From Amanita rubescens (taxonomy: Eukaryota; Basidiomycota; Agaricomycetes; Agaricales; Amanitaceae), in assembly GCA_015039365.1 (NCBI GenBank), contig WION01000090.1, forward strand, positions 1-64,000: a DNA stretch of 64,000 nucleotides, written 5' to 3'. The translations under genes were made by a program, and so were the position numbers. The notes below the pieces were generated by a model that was not told where the DNA came from, did not search any database, and saw only the letters and a program-made list of their open reading frames with translations. Of this stretch, positions 29,722 to 57,844 are shown piece after piece; the stretch's first letter is position 1; each line of letters starts with the position of its first letter.

Positions 29722-32700
29722 ATGCAAAATGAGCAACATGGAAAAGGAAATGTTATTGGCTCAATACTGGGAAAGTTGGCCAAGACATTCAACAAGCAGG
29801 ATTTGGCGAGCACCTCAATACTAGGCAAGACAACTCACACACAAACTCATGTTCCTAGCAGAACATCAGTCATGGCAGCTACAACTGGTGCACCTTCTTT
29901 GAGTAGGCTAATTCATGTTTCTCAGCATTGCTCTGACCATGACACATATCAGATGAAACACATGATGTTCAAATGCCTTTGCAGCAACCCCTTGTTAAAC
30001 AACCTCATCATGATTCTAGCACAACATCAATCATGGCTACTACAATTGGTGCACCTTCTCTGAGTAGGCTAATTTATGTGTTTCAGACTCTCAGTGTTGC
30101 TAATCCTTGACTGACACATATCAGATGAAACACATGTTCAAATACCCTTTCAGAAACCCCTTGTCAAACAACCTCATTGTGATTCTAGCACCACAACAAT
30201 CATGACAGTAGCTGGTGGACCTTCTTTGAGTAGGCTAATTTATGTGTTTCATTGCTAATCCTTGACTGCCAACACATATCAGATCCAGATGAGACACATG
30301 TTCAAATGCTCAGGGAACGCTATTTATGTCCATACTTTCGCATCCTTGTCATTGGGAGGGCTAATGCAGGCAAGACAACCATCCTTGAGAACTTTTGTGG
30401 TGTAGCAAAAGGGACAAAGCCCATCATATATGACAAGGATCGTAAGTCAGTCTGAGTCTTGTGCTTTCTAAATTGACTGTTGAGTTTCTTGCAGGTAATC
30501 AGCTTGAGCAGTCTGTGAATCATTTGATCCCATCAGTTGATGTGAGTCAGATCATGATGATGTATAGATGTACCCTCACATACAATGATAACAGAGAGGC
30601 CTGCATGATATTGAGCATGAAATCACATACCCTGGAAGTAACTTTATCTTCCATGACTCTAAGGGTTTTGAATCTGGTTCAACTGAGGAATTGGAGATTG
30701 CATGGAAGTTCATTAAAAAGAAGTCTACAGAAAATGAGCTGAAGAATCAGCTACATGCAATTTGGTATCTTGCCTTATTCCTTTACAGTACTGGCTGACC
30801 TGACTTCCTGCAGGTACTGTATACCCATGGACAGCCCTCGTCCTATTTTACATGCAGAACTTGAATTCTTCAATAAAGGGACAGGCAGAGGTAAGTCCTA
30901 ATGAATTCATATATCATCTTGTTGCCCTGGAGAGATTACCGTTAACTACATATATGTACATACCTTCTTTCCAAAGTTGGCTCAATTGACACAAAATCTA
31001 CTAGTACTGACTAGTCAATATTTCCTTTACAGTTCCTTTGGTGGTTGTATTCACTAAATTTGATGGTCAAATAACCAGTGAATTTGTCAAGTTGAATAAG
31101 GCAATGGATAAAAATAAGCGGTGGAATAGAGCCAGGGAAATTGCTGAAATCACTTTTCAGAATATTTATCTTCCCAAAGTTTTGGATGCCAAATATCCTC
31201 CCAAGGCATGTGTGCGATTGGAAGGTGATGATGAGGATCTCTTCCTAAAAAATGGGAGTAACTTTGTTTCATAGACATTGATTTACCAACGAATAATTGT
31301 GCTCAATTAACTCAGAAAACTGCAGATGTGATAGATGATGGCATACATCAGCTGTTTGTTTCAACACAGATGAATGATCTAGACCTTTCTGTTAAATCTG
31401 CACTTCAGTGAGGATCACATTCAAAACATTACTTACTGACATTGACATTGTTCAGACATGTTCTGAAACATAAACATTGGACATGGGAGAATGTTATTCT
31501 CATAGTTTTTTCAAAATTTTCACATTTCTGGGTATGATTTTTTGTCAAACTACACATTAACAATTAAATAGCAATAGGTGGACAGAGAGGTAGGCGTCTT
31601 TCAAATGGAATGCTAAATAATTTCAAAAAGTTAATCAGGAGGTAAGTAACACTTCAATGCCTTCACATGAAAACTATATTAGTATTACTTCAGATGGTCA
31701 ATAAACAACTGGATGAAGCACATGTTAGTACATACATATTCTTGCTGGCAGCATCTGATGTGTTTTATATCAGTGGGTAAGTGACATTGGACTAGCATAG
31801 ATCTACAGTACATATTGTCTTGGCATGACAACAGTTTGTAAGTAATGCTTCTTTTTGTGATCAGCTGTCTTGTCTCATAATTTATAGGAAGTAAGTGACA
31901 TGATAATTTTGATTTTTCATAAATGATCCCATGGTGCATCATATGACCAATAGAAAGTGAGTTAATCTAACATTGTGAGCAGACTTGTCAATCCAGTGTC
32001 TCATCAACAGGGAGTGAGTAATAAAATGCTGCCTCACACCACATCTGACCTGCTTAAAGAAAGTAAGCAACATTAATGTTGGAGTGCAGTTTATCAGACA
32101 TATATTAATGAACAACAGAAAGTTAGTGACATCCTGCCATTATCTGAGAGAGTGTGCCTCAACAATTTCCATTGAATTAACAACAGGAAGTAAGTGTCAC
32201 TTCCTTTCTGTCTGCTTATAAGCATTACATCTTATCCCAAAACAACAGACAGTAAATATTTCTCTTTTTCAGAGCCTCTTCACAGGCAATTAAATAACAA
32301 ACAGGATGTATGTGATACTTTTGTGAGATGCAAATTCATCATATGAAATACTATGGAAAAAGATAGTCAGTGGCATTGTTTTCTTTCTTCTGACCCCATT
32401 ACATATGTTCATTTCATTCTAAAAGGAAGTGAGTGATGCTGGCCACTCAGCTGCAAGACATTATGAAGACATTATTTTGCTCAACAGATGGTGAGTGATA
32501 CTACAAGTCTTATGAAAAGCAGTAAATATTTTCCTATAAACATAGAAGGTTAGCAGCATGTGATACTAGTTTCATGGTTCAAAAGATGACCTTATCCTAT
32601 GGCCAACAGTATGTGAGTAACATTGCAAATATGTCTGGAAAGCTTTTTTATCTATTTTCTATGACTGACAGGATGTGAGCAACATTGAAGACTTTTGTGT

Positions 32701-34894
32701 AATGCAGTCTCATCACATCTTTTCCTATGACCAACAGCAAGTGAGTGCATTTTGTGAAAGAACATCTCATCACATCTTTTTCTATCACCAACAGGAAGTG
32801 AGTGACATTGCACATTTTTTCACATCTTCTCCTATGACCAACAGGAAGTGAGTGACATTACACAAGTTGTGAAAGTCTCACCACATCCTTTCCCATGACC
32901 ATTAGGGAGTGAGTAAACATTGCACATTTTGTGAAAGGCAGTTACCTTATCATATGACCAACAGGTTGTGAGTGACATCACATATCTTGTGAAAGGCAGT
33001 CTTATCACATATTTTTCCTGTGATCAACAGTTTGTGAGCAACATTGCACATTTTGTGACAGGCAGTCTCTCATCACATGTTCCTATGACCAACAGCTTGT
33101 GAGTAACATTGCAGAATTTGTGGAGGTCAGTCTCATCACATATTTGCCTATCACCAACAGCTTGTGAGTGATATTGCACATGTTGTGAAGGGCAGCCTAA
33201 CCACATCTTTTCCTATCACCAACAGCGAGTGAGTGACATTGCACATTTCATGAAGCAGTTTCATCACACCCTTTCATGCACATGACCAACAGTCAGTGAG
33301 TTCGGATGCACACTTTGTAAAAGGCACTCTCATCACATCTTTTCCTATCACCAACAGGGTGTGAGTGACATTGCACCTTTTGTGAAAGGCAGAGCAGGCT
33401 CATCACATCTTTTTTTATATGACCAACAGCAGGTGAGTGACATTGCACATTTTTGAAATGTGGTCTCATCACATCTTTTCCTATGTACAACAGGGAGTGA
33501 GTGACATTGCACACTTTGTGGAATGCAGTCTCATCACTCATTTTCTTATGACCAACAGCTTGTGAGTGGTATTGCACATTTTGTGAAAGGTAGTCTCATC
33601 ATATGACCAACAGCTTGTGAGTGATATTGCCCATTTTGTGAAAGGCAAGCCCATTACATCTTTTTTCATGATCAACAGCGAGTGAGTGACATTGCACATT
33701 TTGGGAACTTGGGCAGTCTCATGAGTCATGACTCTCATCACATCTTTTTCTATGACCAACAGAGAGTGAGTGACATTGCACATTAGTCTCATCACATCAT
33801 TTCTTATGACCACCAGCTTGTGAGTGATGTTGCACATTTTGTGAAAGGCAATCTTATTGTATCTTTTTCCCATAACCAACAGGTTGTGAGTGATGTTGCA
33901 CATTCTTGAAAGGCAGTCTCATTACATCTTTACTACTACTATGACCAACAGCAAGTGAGAAACTTTGCACATCATTTTGTGAAAGGAAGTCTCATCACAT
34001 CTCTATGACCAACAGGGAGTAAGTGACATTGCACATTGTGTGAAAGGCAGTTTCATCACATCTTTCCTATGACCAACAGCGAGTGAGTGACATCACAATT
34101 TTTCTTACCTGTAGTCTCACCATACATCAATTCATGAATTGTATTTAATATATTATGTACATATGTACATATATCAGAAAGTGAGCATGTTGCCATACCT
34201 TTTCCCTAGATCTTCCTTTTACCTTACTGTCATCATAGATTGTAAGATTTCATTTCAACTTGCCCACTCCCACCTCATGTGATCATTCAATTCTGTCACT
34301 TATATGACTTTCCTTGATTTCCAGGTGAGTGATGCTGGTTCATGATGTATTGATTTTCCTATCAGTTTGTATGCTAGTGTGTAGGTCTGATGATACACTG
34401 GCTTTGGATGTTTTATTCTTTCTCATAACCAGCATGAACTTTTCTCCATGTTTGGAGATATGTGGCAAGAAAACTTTGCAGTCAAGGTATTTTTGTTTTT
34501 TGTTTTGAGAGGGGGTAGTGCACAACTCATGCCATTCAAACAAGCTTACTCATTGCCAAGTCTTAGTTTGTGAATTATTCCTTTCATTTACTGTGTTTAT
34601 GCTTAAACTTTCAAGCAATTATTATCATTGCCAAGTTATCCTTTTGGATCAAGAAACCATTTGTGCCATCAGTCACTGATGCCTTTGATCAATACAAGCA
34701 AAGAGGCTATGCTCAGAAGTTGAAGACCAACATTACTCCCAGCTTTATCCGCTCTTGTCATCGACTTGATTTTGTCACATTACTCCATATGCAGGTGACC
34801 CACACTGTTGATGGTATGTACTTTGTCTAGTCATACATTACTTATGAATAATTTATTGCAGGGTGAAATGCATGACATGGTATCCAGTAGGTGA
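29722..34894 (+). CDS. G-domain (P-loop GTPase-like) protein gene with a single-codon microexon array
   Basis: The exons before the array are 29722-29902, 29953-30063, 30125-30229, 30283-30441, 30495-30541, 30595-30764, 30814-30890, 31033-31224, 31275-31407 and 31456-31531. They sum to 417 codons. They contain G1 GRANAGKTT (about 30360), G3 FHDSKGF (about 30655) and G4 VVVFTKFD (about 31045), the nucleotide-binding motifs of fungal G-domain proteins, then WTWENVILIVFSKFSHFW. A 12-nt exon (31578-31589) follows, then about 42 exons of exactly 3 nt to 34368. After these come exons 34433-34486 (HELFSMFGDMWQENF), 34636-34794 (LSFWIKKPFVPSVTDAFDQY) and 34862-34894 with a stop. All three of these enter and leave in phase 0, matching the phase before the array. 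The full model codes for about 544 residues over roughly 56 exons. The gene is visibly AT-rich compared with its neighbours. Splicing of the array is inferred from sequence only. Confidence 0.7.
29880..30310 (+). repeat. Tandemly duplicated exon-plus-intron units in the G-domain gene
   Basis: Three similar units of about 160-180 bp. Each has an exon beginning ETHVQ (ETHDVQ in the first), containing PLVKQPH in the second and third exons and ending GAPSL or GGPSL, followed by an intron starting GTAGGCTAATT and ending ACACATATCAG. The third exon start (PDETHVQMLRERY) leads directly into the G domain. All copies keep the same splice phase, so each adds about 35-37 residues without breaking the frame. 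Confidence 0.75.
31639..34368 (+). repeat. Array of ~42 intron-like repeats separated by 3-nt microexons
   Basis: Each unit runs from a 5' splice site (mostly GTGAGTGACATTGC) through about 46-95 nt to CTATGACCAACAG or a variant. The next unit begins after exactly three bases. The triplets start at 31639, 31694, 31774, 31835, 31888, 31954, 32011, 32060, 32119, 32187, 32249, 32305, 32363, 32426, 32488, 32546, 32610, 32672, 32738, 32795, 32845, 32906, 32965, 33031, 33096, 33161, 33226, 33293, 33358, 33430, 33494, 33559, 33614, 33679, 33763, 33817, 33883, 33952, 34016, 34080, 34178 and 34366. Triplets differ from unit to unit (GAA, CTT, CGA, GGA, CAA, GTT, TTT, TAT, TCA and others). None is a stop in the phase set by the flanking exons. 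The introns are near-identical from about 32700 to 34080 and diverged before that. Confidence 0.85.
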
Positions 34895-35042: not shown

Positions 35043-35728
35043 TGTAAGGACGGTGATCCTAATTGGGACGGAGCCCGGGAACTAAGCCGCGGACGGGGAA
35101 GGACGGAGTATAACGGAGTCCGGGACGTAGTGGGGAAAGGCTAGGCTTCAGCGTGCAAGCTGCGCCGTGCTAACGTACGTCTTGCCTAAACTTCTGGAGA
35201 ACGCTCTGGAGTCCGGGATGGAGTCCGGGACCGGAGTCCGAAGGGCGAGCAGTCTGGATGAGGTTGAGACGATGAAAGACAGGGAGTCAATACGAGTTGG
35301 GGCACAATCCAAGTCGATATTCGGACTACTGTATGAATACAAGTGAGGCCTTATATACGTAGTCCGACAAGGGGTTCTATGGCCGTGTTCTGATAAGCGA
35401 GGAAACCATAGAGATATGGAACAGGAAGTGGAGTAGAGCATATGGTACGAAGGGATAATGATACCAGTGATACCCGAGATGAAACAAGAGGTGAAACAAG
35501 TATGGAAAATATGTAGAAAGGAACTTAGCGAATATGCACGGAGTTGTGACGGAGTTGTGACGGAGTCCGTCACGGAGTTTGTCACGGAGTTGTCACGGAG
35601 TTTTCGGAGTTTTGGCATAGGCTTGATATGAGATGCGACATGGGTGGAAAGTGGTCATGGGTATAGTCAGGAGTCCATCGGGGTCCGAGGTCATGGAGTT
35701 TGGGTGGAGTCTGGAACGGGATATGACA
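35043..35728. mobile_element. Solo LTR with 5-bp target-site duplication
   Basis: A 686-bp sequence begins TGTAAGGACGG and ends GGGATATGACA, so the ends are TGT...ACA as in LTR retrotransposons. It is flanked on both sides by ATGGC (35038-35042 and 35729-35733), a perfect 5-bp target-site duplication. No internal retrotransposon domains are present, so this is a solo LTR left by recombination between two LTRs. The inside is rich in the short motif CGGAGT, including a run of near-repeats at 35540-35610. The family (Gypsy or Copia) cannot be told from the LTR alone. Confidence 0.85.
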
Positions 35729-36159: not shown

Positions 36160-37804
36160 TCAGCAGATGGGAAGAAGTTGGCATAGAGACCATGCATCTC
36201 CATGCGCTTGCGGATGAAGTTGATCGATGTGACGTACTGTGCAGTCGGAGACATTGGTGTCTCCAGCGCCGCCTGTCATCAAACCAGCAATTCTACCCTT
36301 TCCATCGACGACACTCGAGCCAGAGTCGCCAGGCTCGGAGAACGGTCCCGACTTTGAGTTGCGCGGCAAGACAGACACCTCTTTCGACATCATGAGACTG
36401 ACATCGTCCTTCGGCAGATGGAACTCATCATCAAAGTAGTACCTTGCGAACGAGCGCATGGTGTTGAGCTGTCCGACGGTGAGGCCGGTGGCGTGGCCAC
36501 GCTTCATCACCATTATGGCCGGATCGTTATCGTGGCCAAGAATTTTCGGGTCCGACTTCCACATCTCTTCGTCGGGAATAAAGCCGGATAACTCATGGAG
36601 ACGATTTCCGGGATATTTGAAGGAGGGCGGGTTGCCTGCTTGGGGGAACATCCATGAGGTGAAGTTCTGCATCGTGACGTCGATGCCAAGATCTATAACA
36701 TTCCCGACGAAGTTGGTAGCGTTGATCTTGGACGCGTCAACCTTGACGACGGCCCAATCTTCAGTAAACCCGCTGTCCCCAACGTTGCAAGCAATGGGGG
36801 GAGACAGAAAGACGTGGCCGATGACTCGCTTTTTGGGGTCCTTCCAGTCCAAGTCGCGGGTGACATCCGGGAGGAATGCCTGGAGGTCTTTGATAGCCTC
36901 GTCCGCTTCCTTCAACAACGGGATAACAATATCCGTCTCTCGCTTAGCGTACGCCGGCTCCATCCGACCAGTAGCAGTAGCATTCAACCGCATCTGGAGC
37001 TGCTCAATCAAGTTCTTCGTTTCCCTGATCTCGGACGCGATGTCCTTGAGGTGCTTCTCGGCAGCGGATTCGCTGAAGAGCAGGACCTTCCGGCGGGGTT
37101 GGTTAGTGCGGTCGCACTTGACTAGCTCGTTGTCGTTGCGATTAGCCTGTATGACAACGTGACGGGCTGTTACGAGGAAGAGCTCGCCAGGGTAACGGGG
37201 GATCGGAGATGAAGAGGCCCCCAGTCCCGCTGACGGTTGGGCGGGCCTCGGTAGAGATCGGGAGACCAAGGGCGGTGGAGAAGGGTTCGATGACGCGGAC
37301 AGTGCCAACGGAGGTAGGAACTGGCTTGTACAATCTGGCGGACCGGAACACTGACGACTCACGCAGTTCGACGTCGACGTCATTGATGCCGTTCGAAGAT
37401 AGGATATTCTTGCATTGAATGGCGACATTGACGCCAGCCTCCGGAGCGAGGGTGCCAGGAAGGACACCAACCCAGATGATGGCAGGGGGGGACGAGTCAC
37501 CAGCGTACCCGATGCGGACAGGGTCGAGGCTTGAAGCCTTCACCCCTATATCATCCAAATAGCTAATCATCTGGGGGCCAACCTTGTCCTCCCAGCAATC
37601 CTCGAGAGGATGGCCAAAGCCAAAAGGACTTAGCTCCTTCGGACGAAGGTATGCCTCGGGGCCCCGAGGCTCAATCCAGAGGTAGGTGCTTGAGCGAGCG
37701 ATGAGACGGGGTTTCGAGTAAAGGCCATAGTAAAAATGCATGGCCTCGACAGACGAGGGAGGGGTTGGAGCGGTAGGGCGGTCGCTGTCCTTGGTGGTGG
37801 ACAT
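36160..37804 (-). CDS. Trypsin-fold serine protease-like protein with one frameshift
   Basis: The frame from 37804 reads through an N-terminal region (AIIWVGVLPGTLAPEAGVNV) to GGLFISD, then shifts by one base at a run of five G on the plus strand (37197-37201). The rest continues in the other frame: ELFLVTARHVVIQ (catalytic His), a helical insert KHLKDIASEIRETKNLIEQL, EDWAVVKVD (probable catalytic Asp), and GPFSEPGDSGSSVVDGKG (catalytic Ser in GDSG). The triad fits the PA clan (trypsin/chymotrypsin fold). The predicted coiled coil between His and Asp is unusual and seems shared by Agaricomycete relatives. No signal peptide is seen, so it probably acts inside the cell. The single homopolymer base may be an assembly error or a real disabling mutation. 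It lies beside a solo LTR and the HSP70 block. Confidence 0.7.
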
Positions 37805-44377: not shown

Positions 44378-47227
44378 ATGTCCCGCGCGTCAAAGCCTGA
44401 TGACGGATCTCAAAGGAAACTCGTTATTGCGTTTGACATTGGCATCACGTTCAGTGCCGTCTCCTACGTATTTTTGATACCTCACGAAACGCCGGTAATT
44501 CATAGCGTTACCCAGTGAGTTGCCCTTCTAGTGGTAACCGGCGGATACCTCATCTTAGGATTCCTTTCCAGGTTCCCTGGGCAATTCCGAGTCGGCGGTG
44601 ATTCCAAGATTCCAAGTGTCGTTTGTTACGACACGTATGGTAATGTCGTTGCTGTTGGTTCGGAAACAGACGTAGATACCAATCCTGAGCTCCTGGAAGT
44701 TGAAGGTCTTGTTCGAGCGGAATGGTGTGCTCCAACTCTTTATCAGCTGCCTCTCTCCTAACAAGGTGATATAAGGTTCAAGCTACATCTTCGACCAGCT
44801 CGTCTTGTTGCAGAGCAAGGGTTCGATGATAAAGACTTACCTGCACTTCCTCGGAATAAGTCAGTTATCGACATCTTCAGCGACCTGTTGAGATACATGT
44901 ATAAATCCACGAAGGAGTATATCCGACAGAGATCAGATGACATGTTGAGATCCGTTGGGAATAACATTGAGTTTATCCTTCAGTCACCCCAACGGCTGGG
45001 AAGGCCGACAGCAATCCGAAATACGCCATGCGGCAATCAATGCAGATTTGGTCAACGCAAATGAAGCCCCGGAACGAATCAGCTTCGTCACCGAAGGCGA
45101 GGCCAATCTTCACTTTTGCCTAAACAAAATTCCTGATACTTTCAAGAAATACGTAGGTCGATTCTACTACAGTATCCGACTTGCTGAGTTGTGGTAGGCC
45201 AATGACGGAATACTAGTCGCTAACTGTGGAGAAGGAACTGTGGACATCAGTTCATATGCGCGATCGAAGTCAATGACGTCGGGGAGCAATTTCGAAGAAA
45301 TCGCTCCGGCTGAGTGTACGGGTGCTTCACCTTCCCTGACGCAACACTTACATCTCTTAGGCGTTTTGCAGGGCTCGTTGTTTGTCACCCGTAGAGCGCA
45401 AACTTTTCTTACAGGTCAGCATAACCAAGTTTGTGACGTATGTGATCTAATCATGCTTTCTAGAGAAGCTTCATCTATCGAGGTTTGGAACGGAGAGCGA
45501 CATACAAGTTATGACCAGGATATTTCGACAAAACGACGAAACCCTGCTTTAGGGAACCTTCAAAACCGCACTTTATACGTTTTGGTCGAAATGAACATGA
45601 TCCAGAACACGATATTCGGTCTGGCTGTATCAAACTCAATGGGTAAACGTTTATCATACGCTCAATGTACTATAATAAAATTTCATTGCATATAGCATCG
45701 ACATTGCGAAGTTTTTTGAACCTACCATAAAGGACATTATAAAAGCTATCGAAAAACAGACTAGGAAGACGACTACAAGGATTAGAGTACGTCTCTGAGA
45801 AAGTTGGATGTGTCATAACTAACAACTTGACGTAAAGGCTATCTGTATGGTCGGAACATTTGCTACCTCCGATTATCTGTTCTCCAAATTGGAGGATCAT
45901 TTCAAGTTGAGGGGTATCGACATCTTGAGACCGGACGCTCCTCTGTGAGCAAAAAATGCTGCGCTTCGCATCCATTAACCTAAGGCTCTTGTATCAGAAA
46001 CAACGCGGTTGCAGAAGGTGCTATAATATTCAAAATGGAACCTTTTGTGTCCTCAGGCTGTGAAGCGCATCACCGTCTTACGAAACTGCAGAACGGCTTT
46101 GACCGGCTTCAAGAGAAATCCAGCAGAGAATTGAGGGCGGCACAAGACGAGTTTGAGGCCCTCCGTGAGCAGACCGACGAGCTCAAGGGGCTCCTCGACA
46201 CGCAAGCCGTCGAGCTGACCGCCGCAAGCGAGTTTACTTTCATGACCGACCAGGCACAAGCAGAGCTTCAGGCTCTCAGTGAGCAGACCGACGAGCTCAA
46301 GAGGCTCGTCGACACGCAAGCCGTCGGGCTGACCGCCGCACATGAGTTCACCCCCATGACCGACCAGGTCTCAGCGGCCAACGTTAGTCGGACGGTAAAA
46401 GACCTCAATTCTACCATATACCAAACTTCTATCCAGTTAATCTCCATCGAACAACCCGCTCCTGCTACGGCCCCCTCTGCATCCGCCGCGGATACGGAAC
46501 GCTTGCACGTCCAGGCACGAATCTATTCCGTTGGTGTTATTGGCGAGCGGTTGCTTCATCTCGCGCAAACCGTCGGACAAGAGGACGAATCATTCCCTAT
46601 CCTCGCTTTCCAGAGTGGCATAGCCCACGTGTGCTTTTCCGCTATCTCTTCATGGGTTTATGGGCGTGGCCACGAAACTCAGAACGAAATCCTCAACCTC
46701 GCATACGAACAGATCTGGGCCAACGGTACGTCGCCCTTTTCCACAATTGGCGTCAACCGCATTGCTGACGGCGCGATGTAGAGAAGCAACCCGTTGCAGG
46801 CCACTGGAGAGCGCTGACCCATAAACAGCTATCCGATATGAGCGGCGACAAAGTTCAACGTGAAATGCATACCCTCCTGTCCTACCTCCTGATCAGTATC
46901 GGTTGGAAAGCCGAGCCGCGGCAGATTCGGGTTTTGCTCGAGGAAAAGTTGAGAGAGTGCATCGACGAGATCGCCGCGTTAGTATCCAAGGCTTCCAGGA
47001 TGATCCGCGAGGAGTTCGTCTCGGATGACTTGCAGGTCATTTATGTGCGGGCTGGGCAGCACTTCAACCCATCCTTGATGGATGCAGAAAAGGGGCAAGC
47101 TTCGCCCGAGGTCCAGGCATCTGTCCTCGGTACGGTAGAGCTTGGTCTCGCGTTGCAAAATCGTGCTGGAGGACAACAGATGTTGTTGAAACCAAGGGTA
47201 GCCCTCGATACGCAGACACCTGCTTGA
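44378..47227 (+). CDS. HSP70 ATPase domain fused to coiled-coil family A (copy 1, three 1-nt insertions)
   Basis: Exons: 44378-44514, 44572-44724, 44775-45152, 45198-45321, 45361-45414, 45464-45642, 45696-45786, 45838-45944, 45998-46725, 46782-47227. They sum to 2,397 nt. The HSP70 part has VIAFDIGITFSAVSYVFL-like phosphate-1, VANCGEGTVDISSYA as phosphate-2 (the copy at 53052 has DCGGGT), AICMVGTFATSDYLF as adenosine motif and NNAVAEGAIIFKME. It then passes without a break into HHRLTKLQNGFDRLQEKSSR, the family A coiled coil and its whole C-terminal half. The membrane segment of family A and the C-terminal part of HSPA12 are both absent. Compared with sister copies there are three extra single bases, at 44818-44821 (GGGG), 44979-44980 (TT) and about 45514-45520. 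Together they restore frame but interrupt about 230 codons. A 35-residue coiled-coil segment is duplicated internally. Confidence 0.7.
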
Positions 47228-55935: not shown

Positions 55936-57844
55936 TCAATCGTCAAAGCTTACGACAACGTTGGCTCGACATAGCACGTTGTACTCCTCTTCGTCGACCC
56001 ATCTATCCCCTTGACGTCGCTGGACATACAACGTCCGAGCAATTCCTATTGTCGTCGTGCACATGATGGGCCCAGCCATCAGTTTTTGAGACTTGCCTCT
56101 CGGATCATCCACTTGCATCTTCTCCGGATCGAATTCACTTCCGGGAGAAGGAGCAAATACCTTAATGTCACCCGAAACGTAATCTCCATACATCATTTTC
56201 CGAAGATCCAACATCTTATTGACGAGTTCTGAAAAGTCCTCCTCGAACATGGACTGAAGTTGTTTTTCCGGAAAACCATGCAGGCGTGACAGACGGCGTA
56301 TCAGCAGACTGAAAAGAGATTGTTGGTCCTGCTTCAAGATCCGACTAGCCTCATTGTCCGAGTATACCAGCGCTCTCCACCGAGCTGAGACAGCTTTCGG
56401 TTCTGTAACGCAGACGATCAGATGGCTCATAGGGAGGGGAAAGCGCTTATTTACGTGACGCCTTTATAGCATCAGAGATTTGTTGGAGCATCTGCGTTTT
56501 CTCTGGATTGACGATGGAATCGAACTCGGAGGATAGAACTAGAACACAAAAGTGGTTCATACAAGCTTGAAGCGAAACCAAGATTCTTGGATGTGTCGAA
56601 TTTGCTTTAGCGTCTACTACAAAGTTGCACAAGGATTCGCCAAAGAATGATTTCGTGTTGTTGCTCGGTTGATTCTCCGAACACTTGAAGACATTATCCA
56701 GATGTCCATCTGCAATCGCAGAAGCCAAACAGTAGATACAGTCGTTCAGAGCATTCACTTTGGTTATAATGTCCGTCTCCGAGACGACGTCAGATTTGTT
56801 ACCAAAGACCCTATTCGATTCGAGCTCTTGCTTTGTCAAGCTCAATTCTTTCTCGGTGCGTTCGAGTTCGAGCTTTAACTGATGGAGGTGCTGCTGTAGT
56901 TGGACGACCTGGAAGACTCTAAGTGCCTCTGTCAAAGAACACGGCCACCATATCGTACCTCCGGACTTGCATTAGTAATCTGTAGGAACGAGTTAGAAAT
57001 TCAACGCTCTCGAAATGGCACTTTGTCAAAGTCACCTCAGCTCTTGGGGTCCTTCCATTTTGGCTTCGTGGTTCGGTTGCCACAGGTGCCGCCGGCACTA
57101 GAGCAGATGACGTTGGTTCAATGGTCATAATGTCCGTCTTCGAGACGATGTCAGCTTTGCCACCAAAGACACTATTTGATTCGAGCTCTTGCTTTGTCAT
57201 GCTCAAGTCTTTCTTGGTACGTTCGAGTTCAAGTTGTAACTGATCGGCGAGCTGTTGGACCCGGAAAGCTGTTAGTGATTCCGTCAAAGAACATCGCCAC
57301 CGTATCATACCTTCTTGGTACGTTCGAGTTCGAGTTGTACCTGATCGACGCGCTGCTGTAGTCGGAGGACCTGGAAAGTTCTTAGTGATCTGTCAAAGAA
57401 CATGGTCACCTATCATACCTTATTAGTGCGTTCGAGTTCGAGTCGTAACTGATCGGCGCGCTGCTGTAGTTGGAGGACCTGGAAAGATCTTAGTGATTCT
57501 GTCAAAAAACATGGCCACCATATCATGCCTCCGGACTCGGATCGATAATCTGTAAGAACCGATTAGAAATTTAACGGCATCGACGGTTGAACTTTGTCAG
57601 GCTCACCTGGTATGCCGGTCTTACGGGCCTGCCAAAAGCGCACCTTGGGACAGGTGCCACTCGCACGAAAGCCTCGGATGAAGGCCCTCCAGCAGATATA
57701 GGCTGATCTATTTCATCCACGGGCTATTGTTGACGTCAGCAAGGGTTTTTATTCGAAGCAAAATATACAGCTTACACGTTCACTTTTGTCACTCAACCAG
57801 TTCTCTGCGCGACGCACAAAGGAGTCGATGCTCGTGATGTCCAT
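55936..57844 (-). CDS. Coiled-coil family B protein with multiplied coiled-coil exons, 494 aa
   Basis: Exons: 57844-57776, 57723-57607, a 21-nt exon (IIDPSPE) at about 57530-57550 using a GC donor, 57478-57419, 57370-57311, 57251-57036, a 21-nt exon (ITNASPE) near 56955-56975, 56908-56455 and 56402-55936. The sum is exactly 495 codons, all phase-compatible. Compared with the 368-aa copy it has two extra 60-nt exons (LQLQQRADQLRLELERTNK and a near copy) and a partial duplicate of the N-terminal half (LADQLQLELERTKKDLSMTK to KTDIMT). The core and C-terminus match: SETDIITKVNALNDCIYCLA, SARWRALVYSDNEAS, ANVVVSFDD. In the fifth exon the usual acceptor CAG has become CGG and the next AG, nine bases on, keeps the frame. 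Function unknown. Confidence 0.68.
57241..57530 (-). repeat. Tandem 60-nt exon plus ~50-nt intron repeats
   Basis: Three units of about 108 bp, each containing a coiled-coil exon that begins GTCCTCC and encodes QQRADQLQLELERT-like sequence, then an intron beginning GTATGATA and ending in TTTCCAG. The same unit also occurs twice at 61375-61590 in the decayed family B copy. Confidence 0.8.

What the first reader, a model, noticed from the sequence alone, without database searches (positions are those of the whole stretch)
31578..34486. Array of about 42 consecutive single-codon (3-nt) microexons in one gene
Seen: for 2.7 kb the sequence alternates between intron-sized spacers with GTGAGT-type donors and CAACAG-type acceptors, and exactly three bases. 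The exon before the array ends in phase 0 and the first exon after it is open in phase 0, so every triplet reads as one whole codon; none is a stop. Inference: because each microexon is one codon in phase 0, any subset can be skipped without losing frame, so one gene could make a huge set of variants of one loop or helix. Most fungal introns are recognised across the intron, which could allow such tiny exons. I know of no described array like this.
Basis: partly seen in the sequence, partly recalled or inferred. Interest (0 to 1): 0.97.

Follow-up and report, generated by a model that had tools for sequence, protein, structure and literature searches.

The report
Gene spliced one codon at a time
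In the mushroom Amanita rubescens, a gene of a large GTPase family has 42 three-base pieces, each set between intron-like stretches, and sequences of sister genes that apparently come from mRNA show such pieces joined in order, so part of the protein is likely assembled one codon at a time, a gene layout that none of our literature searches turned up.

Summary
The window (Amanita rubescens) contains a GTPase gene model with 54 exons, 42 of them exactly 3 nt. All 53 introns are GT-AG, the array is phase 0 throughout, and 430 codons read without an internal stop. The decisive test was possible on sister genes. P0122, a spliced and apparently mRNA-derived protein, maps onto A. rubescens contig C67 with 27 consecutive residues, each from its own 3-nt exon, 27 of 27 identical. 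P0025, from a related fungus, aligns in order with 49 of 50 microexons of C737 (31 identical; score 142, best of 2,000 shuffles 62). The genome has well over a hundred related loci, and 29 of 30 checked carry the array start. One strict motif gives 1,084 three-base cases against 13 two-base and 6 four-base cases, 17 of these 19 on two contigs with decaying arrays. Some arrays are young tandem repeats of a codon-plus-intron unit; in others the introns resemble each other hardly more than shuffled ones, yet the triplets persist. The array encodes a variable linker between a GTPase domain and a C-terminal helical domain. The closest known kind is the flatworm micro-exon gene.

The parts
30306..31531 (+). 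Seven ordinary exons of the GTPase domain (30306-30441, 30495-30541, 30595-30764, 30814-30890, 31033-31224, 31275-31407, 31456-31531); P-loop GRANAGKTT; ends ...FSKFSHFW in phase 0. The true start may lie further upstream.
   Evidence: Continuous frame; public protein P0002 of Amanita rubescens on a contig of the same length covers most of it
31578..31589 (+). 12-nt exon VDRE
   Evidence: Phase-0 GT-AG exon; the proteins P0001, P0003 and P0080 read VDR after FPHFW, FPHLW and FPHYW
31639..31641 (+). 3-nt exon GAG (E)
   Evidence: GAG, GTG or AAG at this place in 21 of 24 distinct paralogues, TAG in the other 3
31694..31723 (+). 30-nt exon MVNKQLDEAH
   Evidence: Matches MANKQLSEAQ of the spliced protein P0044; in frame
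31774..34368 (+). Run of 41 single-codon exons. First bases: 31774 31835 31888 31954 32011 32060 32119 32187 32249 32305 32363 32426 32488 32546 32610 32672 32738 32795 32845 32906 32965 33031 33096 33161 33226 33293 33358 33430 33494 33559 33614 33679 33763 33817 33883 33952 34016 34080 34178 34239 34366. Decoded WFEKGKKETDIEMKYDQEEGVFLLRSGQGLLRRLVQGRKIF
   Evidence: spliced proteins P0003 and P0044 match the first part
34433..34486 (+). First ordinary exon after the array, HELFSMFGDMWQENFAVK, phase 0
   Evidence: Conserved in paralogues and in spliced proteins as ELFSVFG (P0050, P0121) and GPLLSLFGD (P0122)
34545..34569 (+). 25-nt exon LTHCQVLV plus one base
   Evidence: By homology to the 25-nt exon that P0122 gives on C67; in frame
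34616..34830 (+). Last exon, C-terminal helical region, stop codon 34828-34830
   Evidence: resembles the C-terminal end of P0050 and P0121

Best explanation
This is a large-GTPase gene of Amanita rubescens in which a protein linker is written as 42 separate three-base exons, and the spliceosome likely joins them one codon per exon, as apparently mRNA-derived sequences of sister genes show for their own arrays. SHOWN: the exon-intron anatomy, the uninterrupted frame, well over a hundred related loci, spliced sequences that carry such triplets in order, and young arrays made of near-identical codon-plus-intron units of about 56 to 65 nt. INFERRED: this locus is spliced like its sisters; the spliced contigs derive from RNA; the array grows and shrinks by tandem duplication or deletion of a codon-plus-intron unit, so each step adds or removes exactly one residue in frame; and the outcome is a hypervariable linker between a GTPase domain and a C-terminal helical domain of predicted immunity-related GTPase-like (IRG-like) fold. 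What the variation is for (for example self/non-self recognition) is a guess.
For: (1) Anatomy: 42 triplets, 53 of 53 introns GT-AG, phase 0 through the array, 430 codons without internal stop; exon length 3 in 37 cases against 0 to 2 at other lengths; a parse with exon lengths 1 to 12 on equal terms gives 488 of 514 exons of 3 nt in 10 array stretches, some of them near-copies of one another. (2) Spliced sequence of a gene in this genome: P0122 (285 aa on a 1,099-bp contig) is identical to C67 over the first 131 of 131 residues, then uses 27 consecutive 3-nt exons, 27 of 27 identical, one with a GC-AG donor; score 275 against at most 112 in 40 order shuffles, which reach at most 18 of 27 identities. 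(3) P0025 (378 aa on a 1,494-bp contig) aligns in order with 49 of the 50 triplets decoded from C737 (31 identical; 7 residues of P0025 face gaps; score 142; 2,000 shuffles mean 34.7, max 62; frame-shifted triplets 28 and 21) and with 47 of 47 of C73 (29 identical; score 124; shuffles max 69); it then reads into a retained intron as VCDIAQFSE, where both genomic copies read VCEMPQFSE after an unusual GTGTGT donor. (4) P0003 and P0044 match the start of the window's array (0 of 2,000 shuffles as good for each). (5) Conservation: 29 of 30 G-domain loci carry the second triplet of the array (TTT) in its splice context; in 24 distinct ones TGG, TTT, GAA, GGA and the third AAA are invariant; 18 of 27 triplet columns are invariant against 25% of 413 intron-interior columns (Fisher p 2e-5). 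(6) Genome-wide CCAACAG-N(k)-GTGAGTGACATTG: k=3 1,084; k=2 13 (3 in C13, 10 in C749); k=4 6 (1 in C13, 3 in C749, 1 each in C254 and C599). (7) Array ages: interiors of adjacent introns are 0.935 (C769) and 0.877 (C13) identical, against 0.546 and 0.559 in C67 and C73, where shuffled interiors give 0.522 and 0.530; yet C67 is the gene whose spliced product uses the 27 triplets. (8) Splice-site positions diverge less than intron interiors in three pairs of copies (0.006/0.013, 0.019/0.039, 0.026/0.117; Fisher p 0.42, 0.047 and 4e-8).
Against: No transcript of this very locus was found. The spliced contigs carry only the source label jgi; that they are cDNA is inferred from the missing introns (a processed retrocopy would also have passed through mRNA). 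P0122 has 20 mismatches to C67 over 285 residues: some are artefacts at its end, five fall in a short exon before the array that my alignment did not place, and a stretch after the 27 triplets does not match. Inside arrays the triplets change as fast as intron interiors (0.026, 0.021, 0.117), so codon identity there is weakly constrained, and the splice-site contrast is not significant in the window's own pair. Two arrays carry frame-breaking pieces (C13 2 and 4 nt, C749 1, 2 and 4 nt). P0050 and P0080 matched none of nine decoded arrays clearly. Only one of 12 array peptides is a significant amphipathic helix. Tandem duplication as the growth step is read from repeat similarity, not observed.
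Confidence: 0.9

Rival explanations
1. Combinatorial splicing: single-codon exons are skipped or kept in many combinations, so one gene makes a large repertoire of linker variants.
For: Every microexon is one codon in phase 0, so any subset keeps the frame; an intron is retained at the end of P0025, so splicing is not perfect; flatworm micro-exon genes are described in print as making proteins that differ by a single residue through exon skipping (passage of PMC7653826).
Against: P0122 includes all 27 triplets of its run; no two isoforms of one locus were available; P0050 and P0121 also differ outside the array (about 95% identical there), so they are different genes or alleles, not isoforms.
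Confidence: 0.15
2. Neutral ratchet: a short intron-plus-codon unit multiplies like satellite DNA because splicing hides it and a flexible linker tolerates extra residues; the variation has no use.
For: Near-identical units in C769 and C13; triplets inside arrays diverge as fast as introns; most of the array-encoded part is predicted with low confidence; decaying arrays exist (C749).
Against: The first triplets are conserved across 24 distinct paralogues; splice sites and length 3 are kept in arrays whose introns hardly resemble each other any more; of 19 frame-breaking cases of one motif 17 lie on two contigs.
Confidence: 0.35
3. Non-coding tandem repeat inside one long intron; the triplets are accidental gaps between repeat units.
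For: Public gene models stop before the array (P0002) or jump over it (P0077); the later part of the window array is a recognisable 65-nt tandem repeat.
Against: Spliced sequences of sister genes contain the triplets in order; exon length is exactly 3 and the frame continues on the other side; paralogues conserve the first triplets more than the introns.
Confidence: 0.03
4. Recursive splicing: the triplets are ratchet points and end up excluded from the mRNA.
For: Acceptor and donor lie close together at each unit, as at recursive splice sites (recalled, no call).
Against: The triplets are in the spliced products of sister genes; recursive sites are recalled to leave no residue between acceptor and donor.
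Confidence: 0.02

Closest known systems
Micro-exon genes (MEGs) of schistosomes and tapeworms
   Same: Runs of short exons with lengths divisible by three, so single residues can in principle be gained or lost without a frame shift; hard for standard annotation (passages of PMC7653826).
   Different: Here a run of 41 exons (84 in an automated parse of contig C3) is exactly one codon each; in some copies the units are tandem repeats of codon plus intron; the host is a mushroom and the protein is a GTPase. The exon sizes of flatworm genes were not seen here beyond the definition (under 70 nt).
Single 3-nt or 1-nt microexons (RPS24 in human; APC11 and VPS55 in plants)
   Same: Exons of three bases or fewer are reported in real genes (listings; passages of PMC8831610).
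   Different: Isolated or a few together in what I saw; no tandem array.
Fungal microexons (Xlr2 of Trichoderma virens)
   Same: A microexon in a filamentous fungus.
   Different: One regulated microexon; [quoted passage not shown]
Introner-like elements of fungi
   Same: Near-identical introns multiply in a fungal genome.
   Different: [quoted passage not shown] other kinds of intron duplication, tandem duplication within a gene among them, gave under 1% of single intron gains in Zymoseptoria tritici (passages of PMC4457414). Here the copies sit within the same gene and carry a codon along.
Immunity-related GTPases (Irga6, Irgb6, IRGB10, GM4951) and dynamin-like proteins

Membership tests
Micro-exon gene (operational definition in PMC7653826) | At least seven exons | tested here: met
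   54 exons in the model
[quoted passage not shown]
   42 exons of 3 nt, plus exons of 12, 30 and 54 nt, of 54 exons
[quoted passage not shown]
   41 consecutive 3-nt exons in the model; a spliced sequence shows 27 in a row in a sister gene
Micro-exon gene (operational definition in PMC7653826) | Protein variants by exon skipping | not testable with these tools
   No isoforms of one locus available; the one same-gene spliced sequence skips none of 27
Introner-like element | Near-identical introns inserted in many unrelated genes | tested here: inconclusive
   Near-identical introns exist, but 21 of the 26 array clusters that I compared by eye between the capped listings and those lie within about 8 kb downstream of a listed member of this GTPase family; 5 were not resolved (C3:127 kb, C12, C26, C31, C35:173 kb)
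Immunity-related GTPase (IRG) | IRG-like arrangement of N-terminal helix, G domain and C-terminal helical domain | tested here: inconclusive
   [not shown]
Immunity-related GTPase (IRG) | Role in cell-autonomous immunity | not testable with these tools
   No functional data

The most novel reading that the evidence does not exclude
A mushroom genome runs a one-codon-per-exon writing system: several thousand codon-plus-intron units in well over a hundred immunity-type GTPase genes, in which tandem duplication edits the protein one residue at a time in the germ line and the spliceosome can further vary the readout, giving a non-self recognition repertoire.
Probability: 0.2. Interest if true: 0.99.

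Novelty: new variant of a known kind. Interest (0 to 1): 0.94.

Why it matters
It shows that a spliceosome can likely handle dozens of consecutive three-base exons in one transcript, which bears directly on how introns and exons are recognised (intron definition taken to its limit). It also suggests a way for genes to evolve in which an intron and one codon are duplicated together, so that a protein segment can lengthen, shorten and change without losing frame. Public models of these genes that I saw stop before the array or skip it, so many of them are probably mis-annotated. If the variation is used, it would be a new source of protein diversity in fungi.

Tried and rejected
Coiled-coil reading: the decoded C8 peptide looks heptad-like and is significantly amphipathic (6 of 1,000 shuffles as high), but the other 11 of 12 peptides tested are not (the next lowest 57 of 1,000), so a coiled coil is not claimed. 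Stop avoidance as proof of translation: CCAACAG-TRA-GTGAGT occurs 2 times (both TGA) against 565 CRA and 17 TYA, and a relaxed parse finds 3 stops in 544 triplets where independent positions predict 31.9; but TTA is rare too (1 against 9.4 expected), so I use this only as support. TAG was not counted genome-wide, nor were spacings other than 2, 3 and 4. Triplet conservation inside arrays: triplets diverge as fast as intron interiors in three pairs of copies, so it cannot be used as evidence there; the fourth pair (C33, C437) is nearly identical and says little. The age test used 10 arrays and the helix test 12 peptides, not every array fetched. A protein search with the window's own decoded linker and C-terminal end found only P0001. 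P0003, P0025 and P0121 have no near-identical gene among the rows listed (no exon above 89%, 90% and 79%), so they come from related fungi or unlisted copies. The longest array (C3: 89 exons parsed in 126257-132094, of which 84 consecutive are 3 nt) has no G-domain match in the 10 kb before it, unexplained. The estimate of about 4,600 triplets in the genome scales the strict motif by sampled arrays and is rough. The number of related loci rests on 236 matches, of which 150 rows are listed; matches are exons, some loci may be second copies of one gene in a two-nucleus assembly, and only 30 loci were checked for the array start. One search used coordinates 3 bases off for the 30-nt exon; the triplet counts are not affected. 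One search had one exon end wrong by 10 bases; one search replaces it. Literature: ten searches of an open-licence library showed no array of single-codon exons in the titles and abstract starts listed; I saw only the top 10 of 119 papers, none of which mentions Amanita. The original schistosome paper (PMC2909574) is not held.
Full report
WHAT IS THERE. In 31000-34600 the pattern acceptor-N(k)-donor occurs 37 times with exactly three bases and 0 to 2 times with any other length from 0 to 12. I built a complete gene model. Seven ordinary exons encode a GTPase domain with the P-loop GRANAGKTT. A 12-nt exon (VDRE), a 3-nt exon (GAG) and a 30-nt exon (MVNKQLDEAH) follow, then 41 consecutive 3-nt exons from 31774 to 34368, then HELFSMFGDMWQENFAVK (34433-34486), a 25-nt exon and a last exon that stops at 34830. 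That makes 54 exons, 42 of them 3 nt, and 53 introns, all GT-AG. The frame is phase 0 throughout the array, and 430 codons are free of internal stops. The 41-codon run decodes as WFEKGKKETDIEMKYDQEEGVFLLRSGQGLLRRLVQGRKIF. Some splice sites at both ends of the array are weak; an unbiased parse keeps 35 of the triplets, and I placed the rest with the help of paralogues and spliced relatives.

SPECIES AND FAMILY. A protein search with the GTPase domain returned annotated proteins of Amanita rubescens; P0002 lies on a contig of 174,126 bases, the length of the window's contig C777. The public model P0002 stops before the array, and another A. rubescens model, P0077, jumps from FPHYW to the C-terminal part. 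The genome has 236 matches to the first GTPase exons, 150 of them listed, nearly all of these covering the same exon at separate places; some may be second copies of one gene.

THE ARRAY IS NOT UNIQUE. One strict version of the junction (26 bases, three of them free) occurs 920 times in the genome and 0 times read backwards. With a slightly shorter motif, three-base spacing occurs 1,084 times, two-base 13 times and four-base 6 times; 17 of those 19 off-length cases lie on contigs C13 and C749, whose arrays also hold frame-breaking pieces when parsed (2 and 4 nt in C13; 1, 2 and 4 nt in C749) and look like arrays under relaxed selection. A parse that treats exon lengths 1 to 12 alike finds 488 of 514 exons of 3 nt in ten array stretches, which include near-copies of one another. 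Of 30 G-domain loci, 29 carry the TTT triplet of the array start in its splice context; among 24 distinct ones five of the nine triplets compared are invariant, a sixth is invariant in 23, and 18 of 27 triplet columns are invariant against 25% of 413 intron-interior columns (Fisher p 2e-5). Three of the 24 read TAG at the first triplet (GAG here), so that exon may be lost there.

SPLICED SEQUENCES. The protein database contains proteins predicted on short contigs labelled jgi whose reading frames run through positions where the genome has introns. I take them to be cDNA; the label does not say so. P0122 (285 aa on a 1,099-bp contig) is identical over its first 131 residues to the gene on C67. 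Spliced alignment to C67 gives 285 residues, 53 exons and 20 mismatches. In it, the residues WFETAKNRAKSYSHEDHYFAFGYFRGA come from 27 consecutive 3-nt exons at C67:52339-53986, 27 of 27 identical, one with a GC donor; the score is 275 against a maximum of 112 in 40 shuffles of residue order, whose identities reach at most 18 of 27. Not all of P0122 fits: one short exon before the array and a stretch after the 27 triplets differ, and the last residues were not placed well. The second, inverted copy on C67 fits worse (32 mismatches). P0025 comes from a related fungus and aligns in order with 49 of the 50 triplets decoded from C737 (31 identical, 7 residues of P0025 facing gaps; score 142 against a mean of 34.7 and maximum of 62 in 2,000 shuffles; 28 and 21 when triplets are read one base off) and with all 47 of C73 (29 identical; 124 against a maximum of 69). 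It ends in a retained intron that reads VCDIAQFSE; the two genomic copies read VCEMPQFSE there, after the same unusual GTGTGT donor. P0003 and P0044 match the start of the window's array better than any of 2,000 shuffles. P0050 and P0080 matched none of the nine arrays clearly.

HOW IT LIKELY CHANGES. In C769 and C13 adjacent intron interiors are 0.935 and 0.877 identical, in the window 0.632, and in C67 and C73 0.546 and 0.559, little more than shuffled interiors give (0.522, 0.530). The arrays are therefore likely of very different ages, and the old ones keep exact three-base exons after the repeat similarity has all but gone. Near-identical neighbours suggest growth by tandem duplication of a codon-plus-intron unit. 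Splice-site positions are less diverged than intron interiors in three pairs of copies (Fisher p 0.42 for the window's pair, 0.047 and 4e-8 for the others), but the triplets are not. C737 has, for example, two triplets (V, N) that C73 lacks. Two related full-length spliced proteins, P0050 and P0121, are 94.7% and 94.3% identical before and after the array part but 42% within it, with lengths 54 and 71.

COMPARISON. Micro-exon genes of flatworms are the closest kind; by the operational definition in PMC7653826 (passages read) this gene model qualifies. It differs in that nearly every micro-exon is one codon, in the length of the run, in the tandem codon-plus-intron unit, and in the host and protein. 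In filamentous fungi a 2024 abstract says functional microexons had not previously been described (PMC11121469, abstract and passages read). Introner-like elements are described in unrelated genes, with other kinds of intron duplication, tandem duplication within a gene among them, rare in Zymoseptoria tritici (PMC4457414, passages read). Single 1-nt and 3-nt microexons are known in plants and animals (PMC8831610, passages read; listings). None of the listings of ten searches of the paper library showed an array of single-codon exons.

VERDICT. The idea that subsets are skipped to make many variants from one gene is possible but untested.

Noticed in passing
G000:C749 (L058) and G000:C13:579500-586500 (L039): Two arrays with frame-breaking pieces (1, 2 and 4 nt in C749; 2 and 4 nt in C13) among similar units; natural examples of arrays that seem to have lost constraint.
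   Followed up: partly
G000:C3:126257-135774: Longest array seen (84 consecutive 3-nt exons parsed at 126809-132093), then a C-terminal exon match and what looks like a second array, with no GTPase-domain match in the 10 kb before it.
   Followed up: partly
G000:C67:54574-54588: A 15-nt exon HAQQR containing CCAACAG, which looks like two triplets whose intron shrank to nine bases and became coding; the spliced protein P0122 reads HAQQR there.
   Followed up: partly
window 29940-30251: A 169-bp tandem repeat (1.8 copies) just upstream of the GTPase gene that seems to duplicate its first-exon region.
   Followed up: no
window 35060-35700: G+C-rich stretch after the gene with repeated CTGGAGTCCGGGA-like and CACGGAGTTGT units.
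   Followed up: no
window 46139-46368 and 57257-57530: Tandem repeats of 114 bp and 108 bp; the first lies inside an open reading frame (46035-46781).
   Followed up: no
window 36160-37500, minus strand: Open reading frame of 446 codons; not identified.
   Followed up: no
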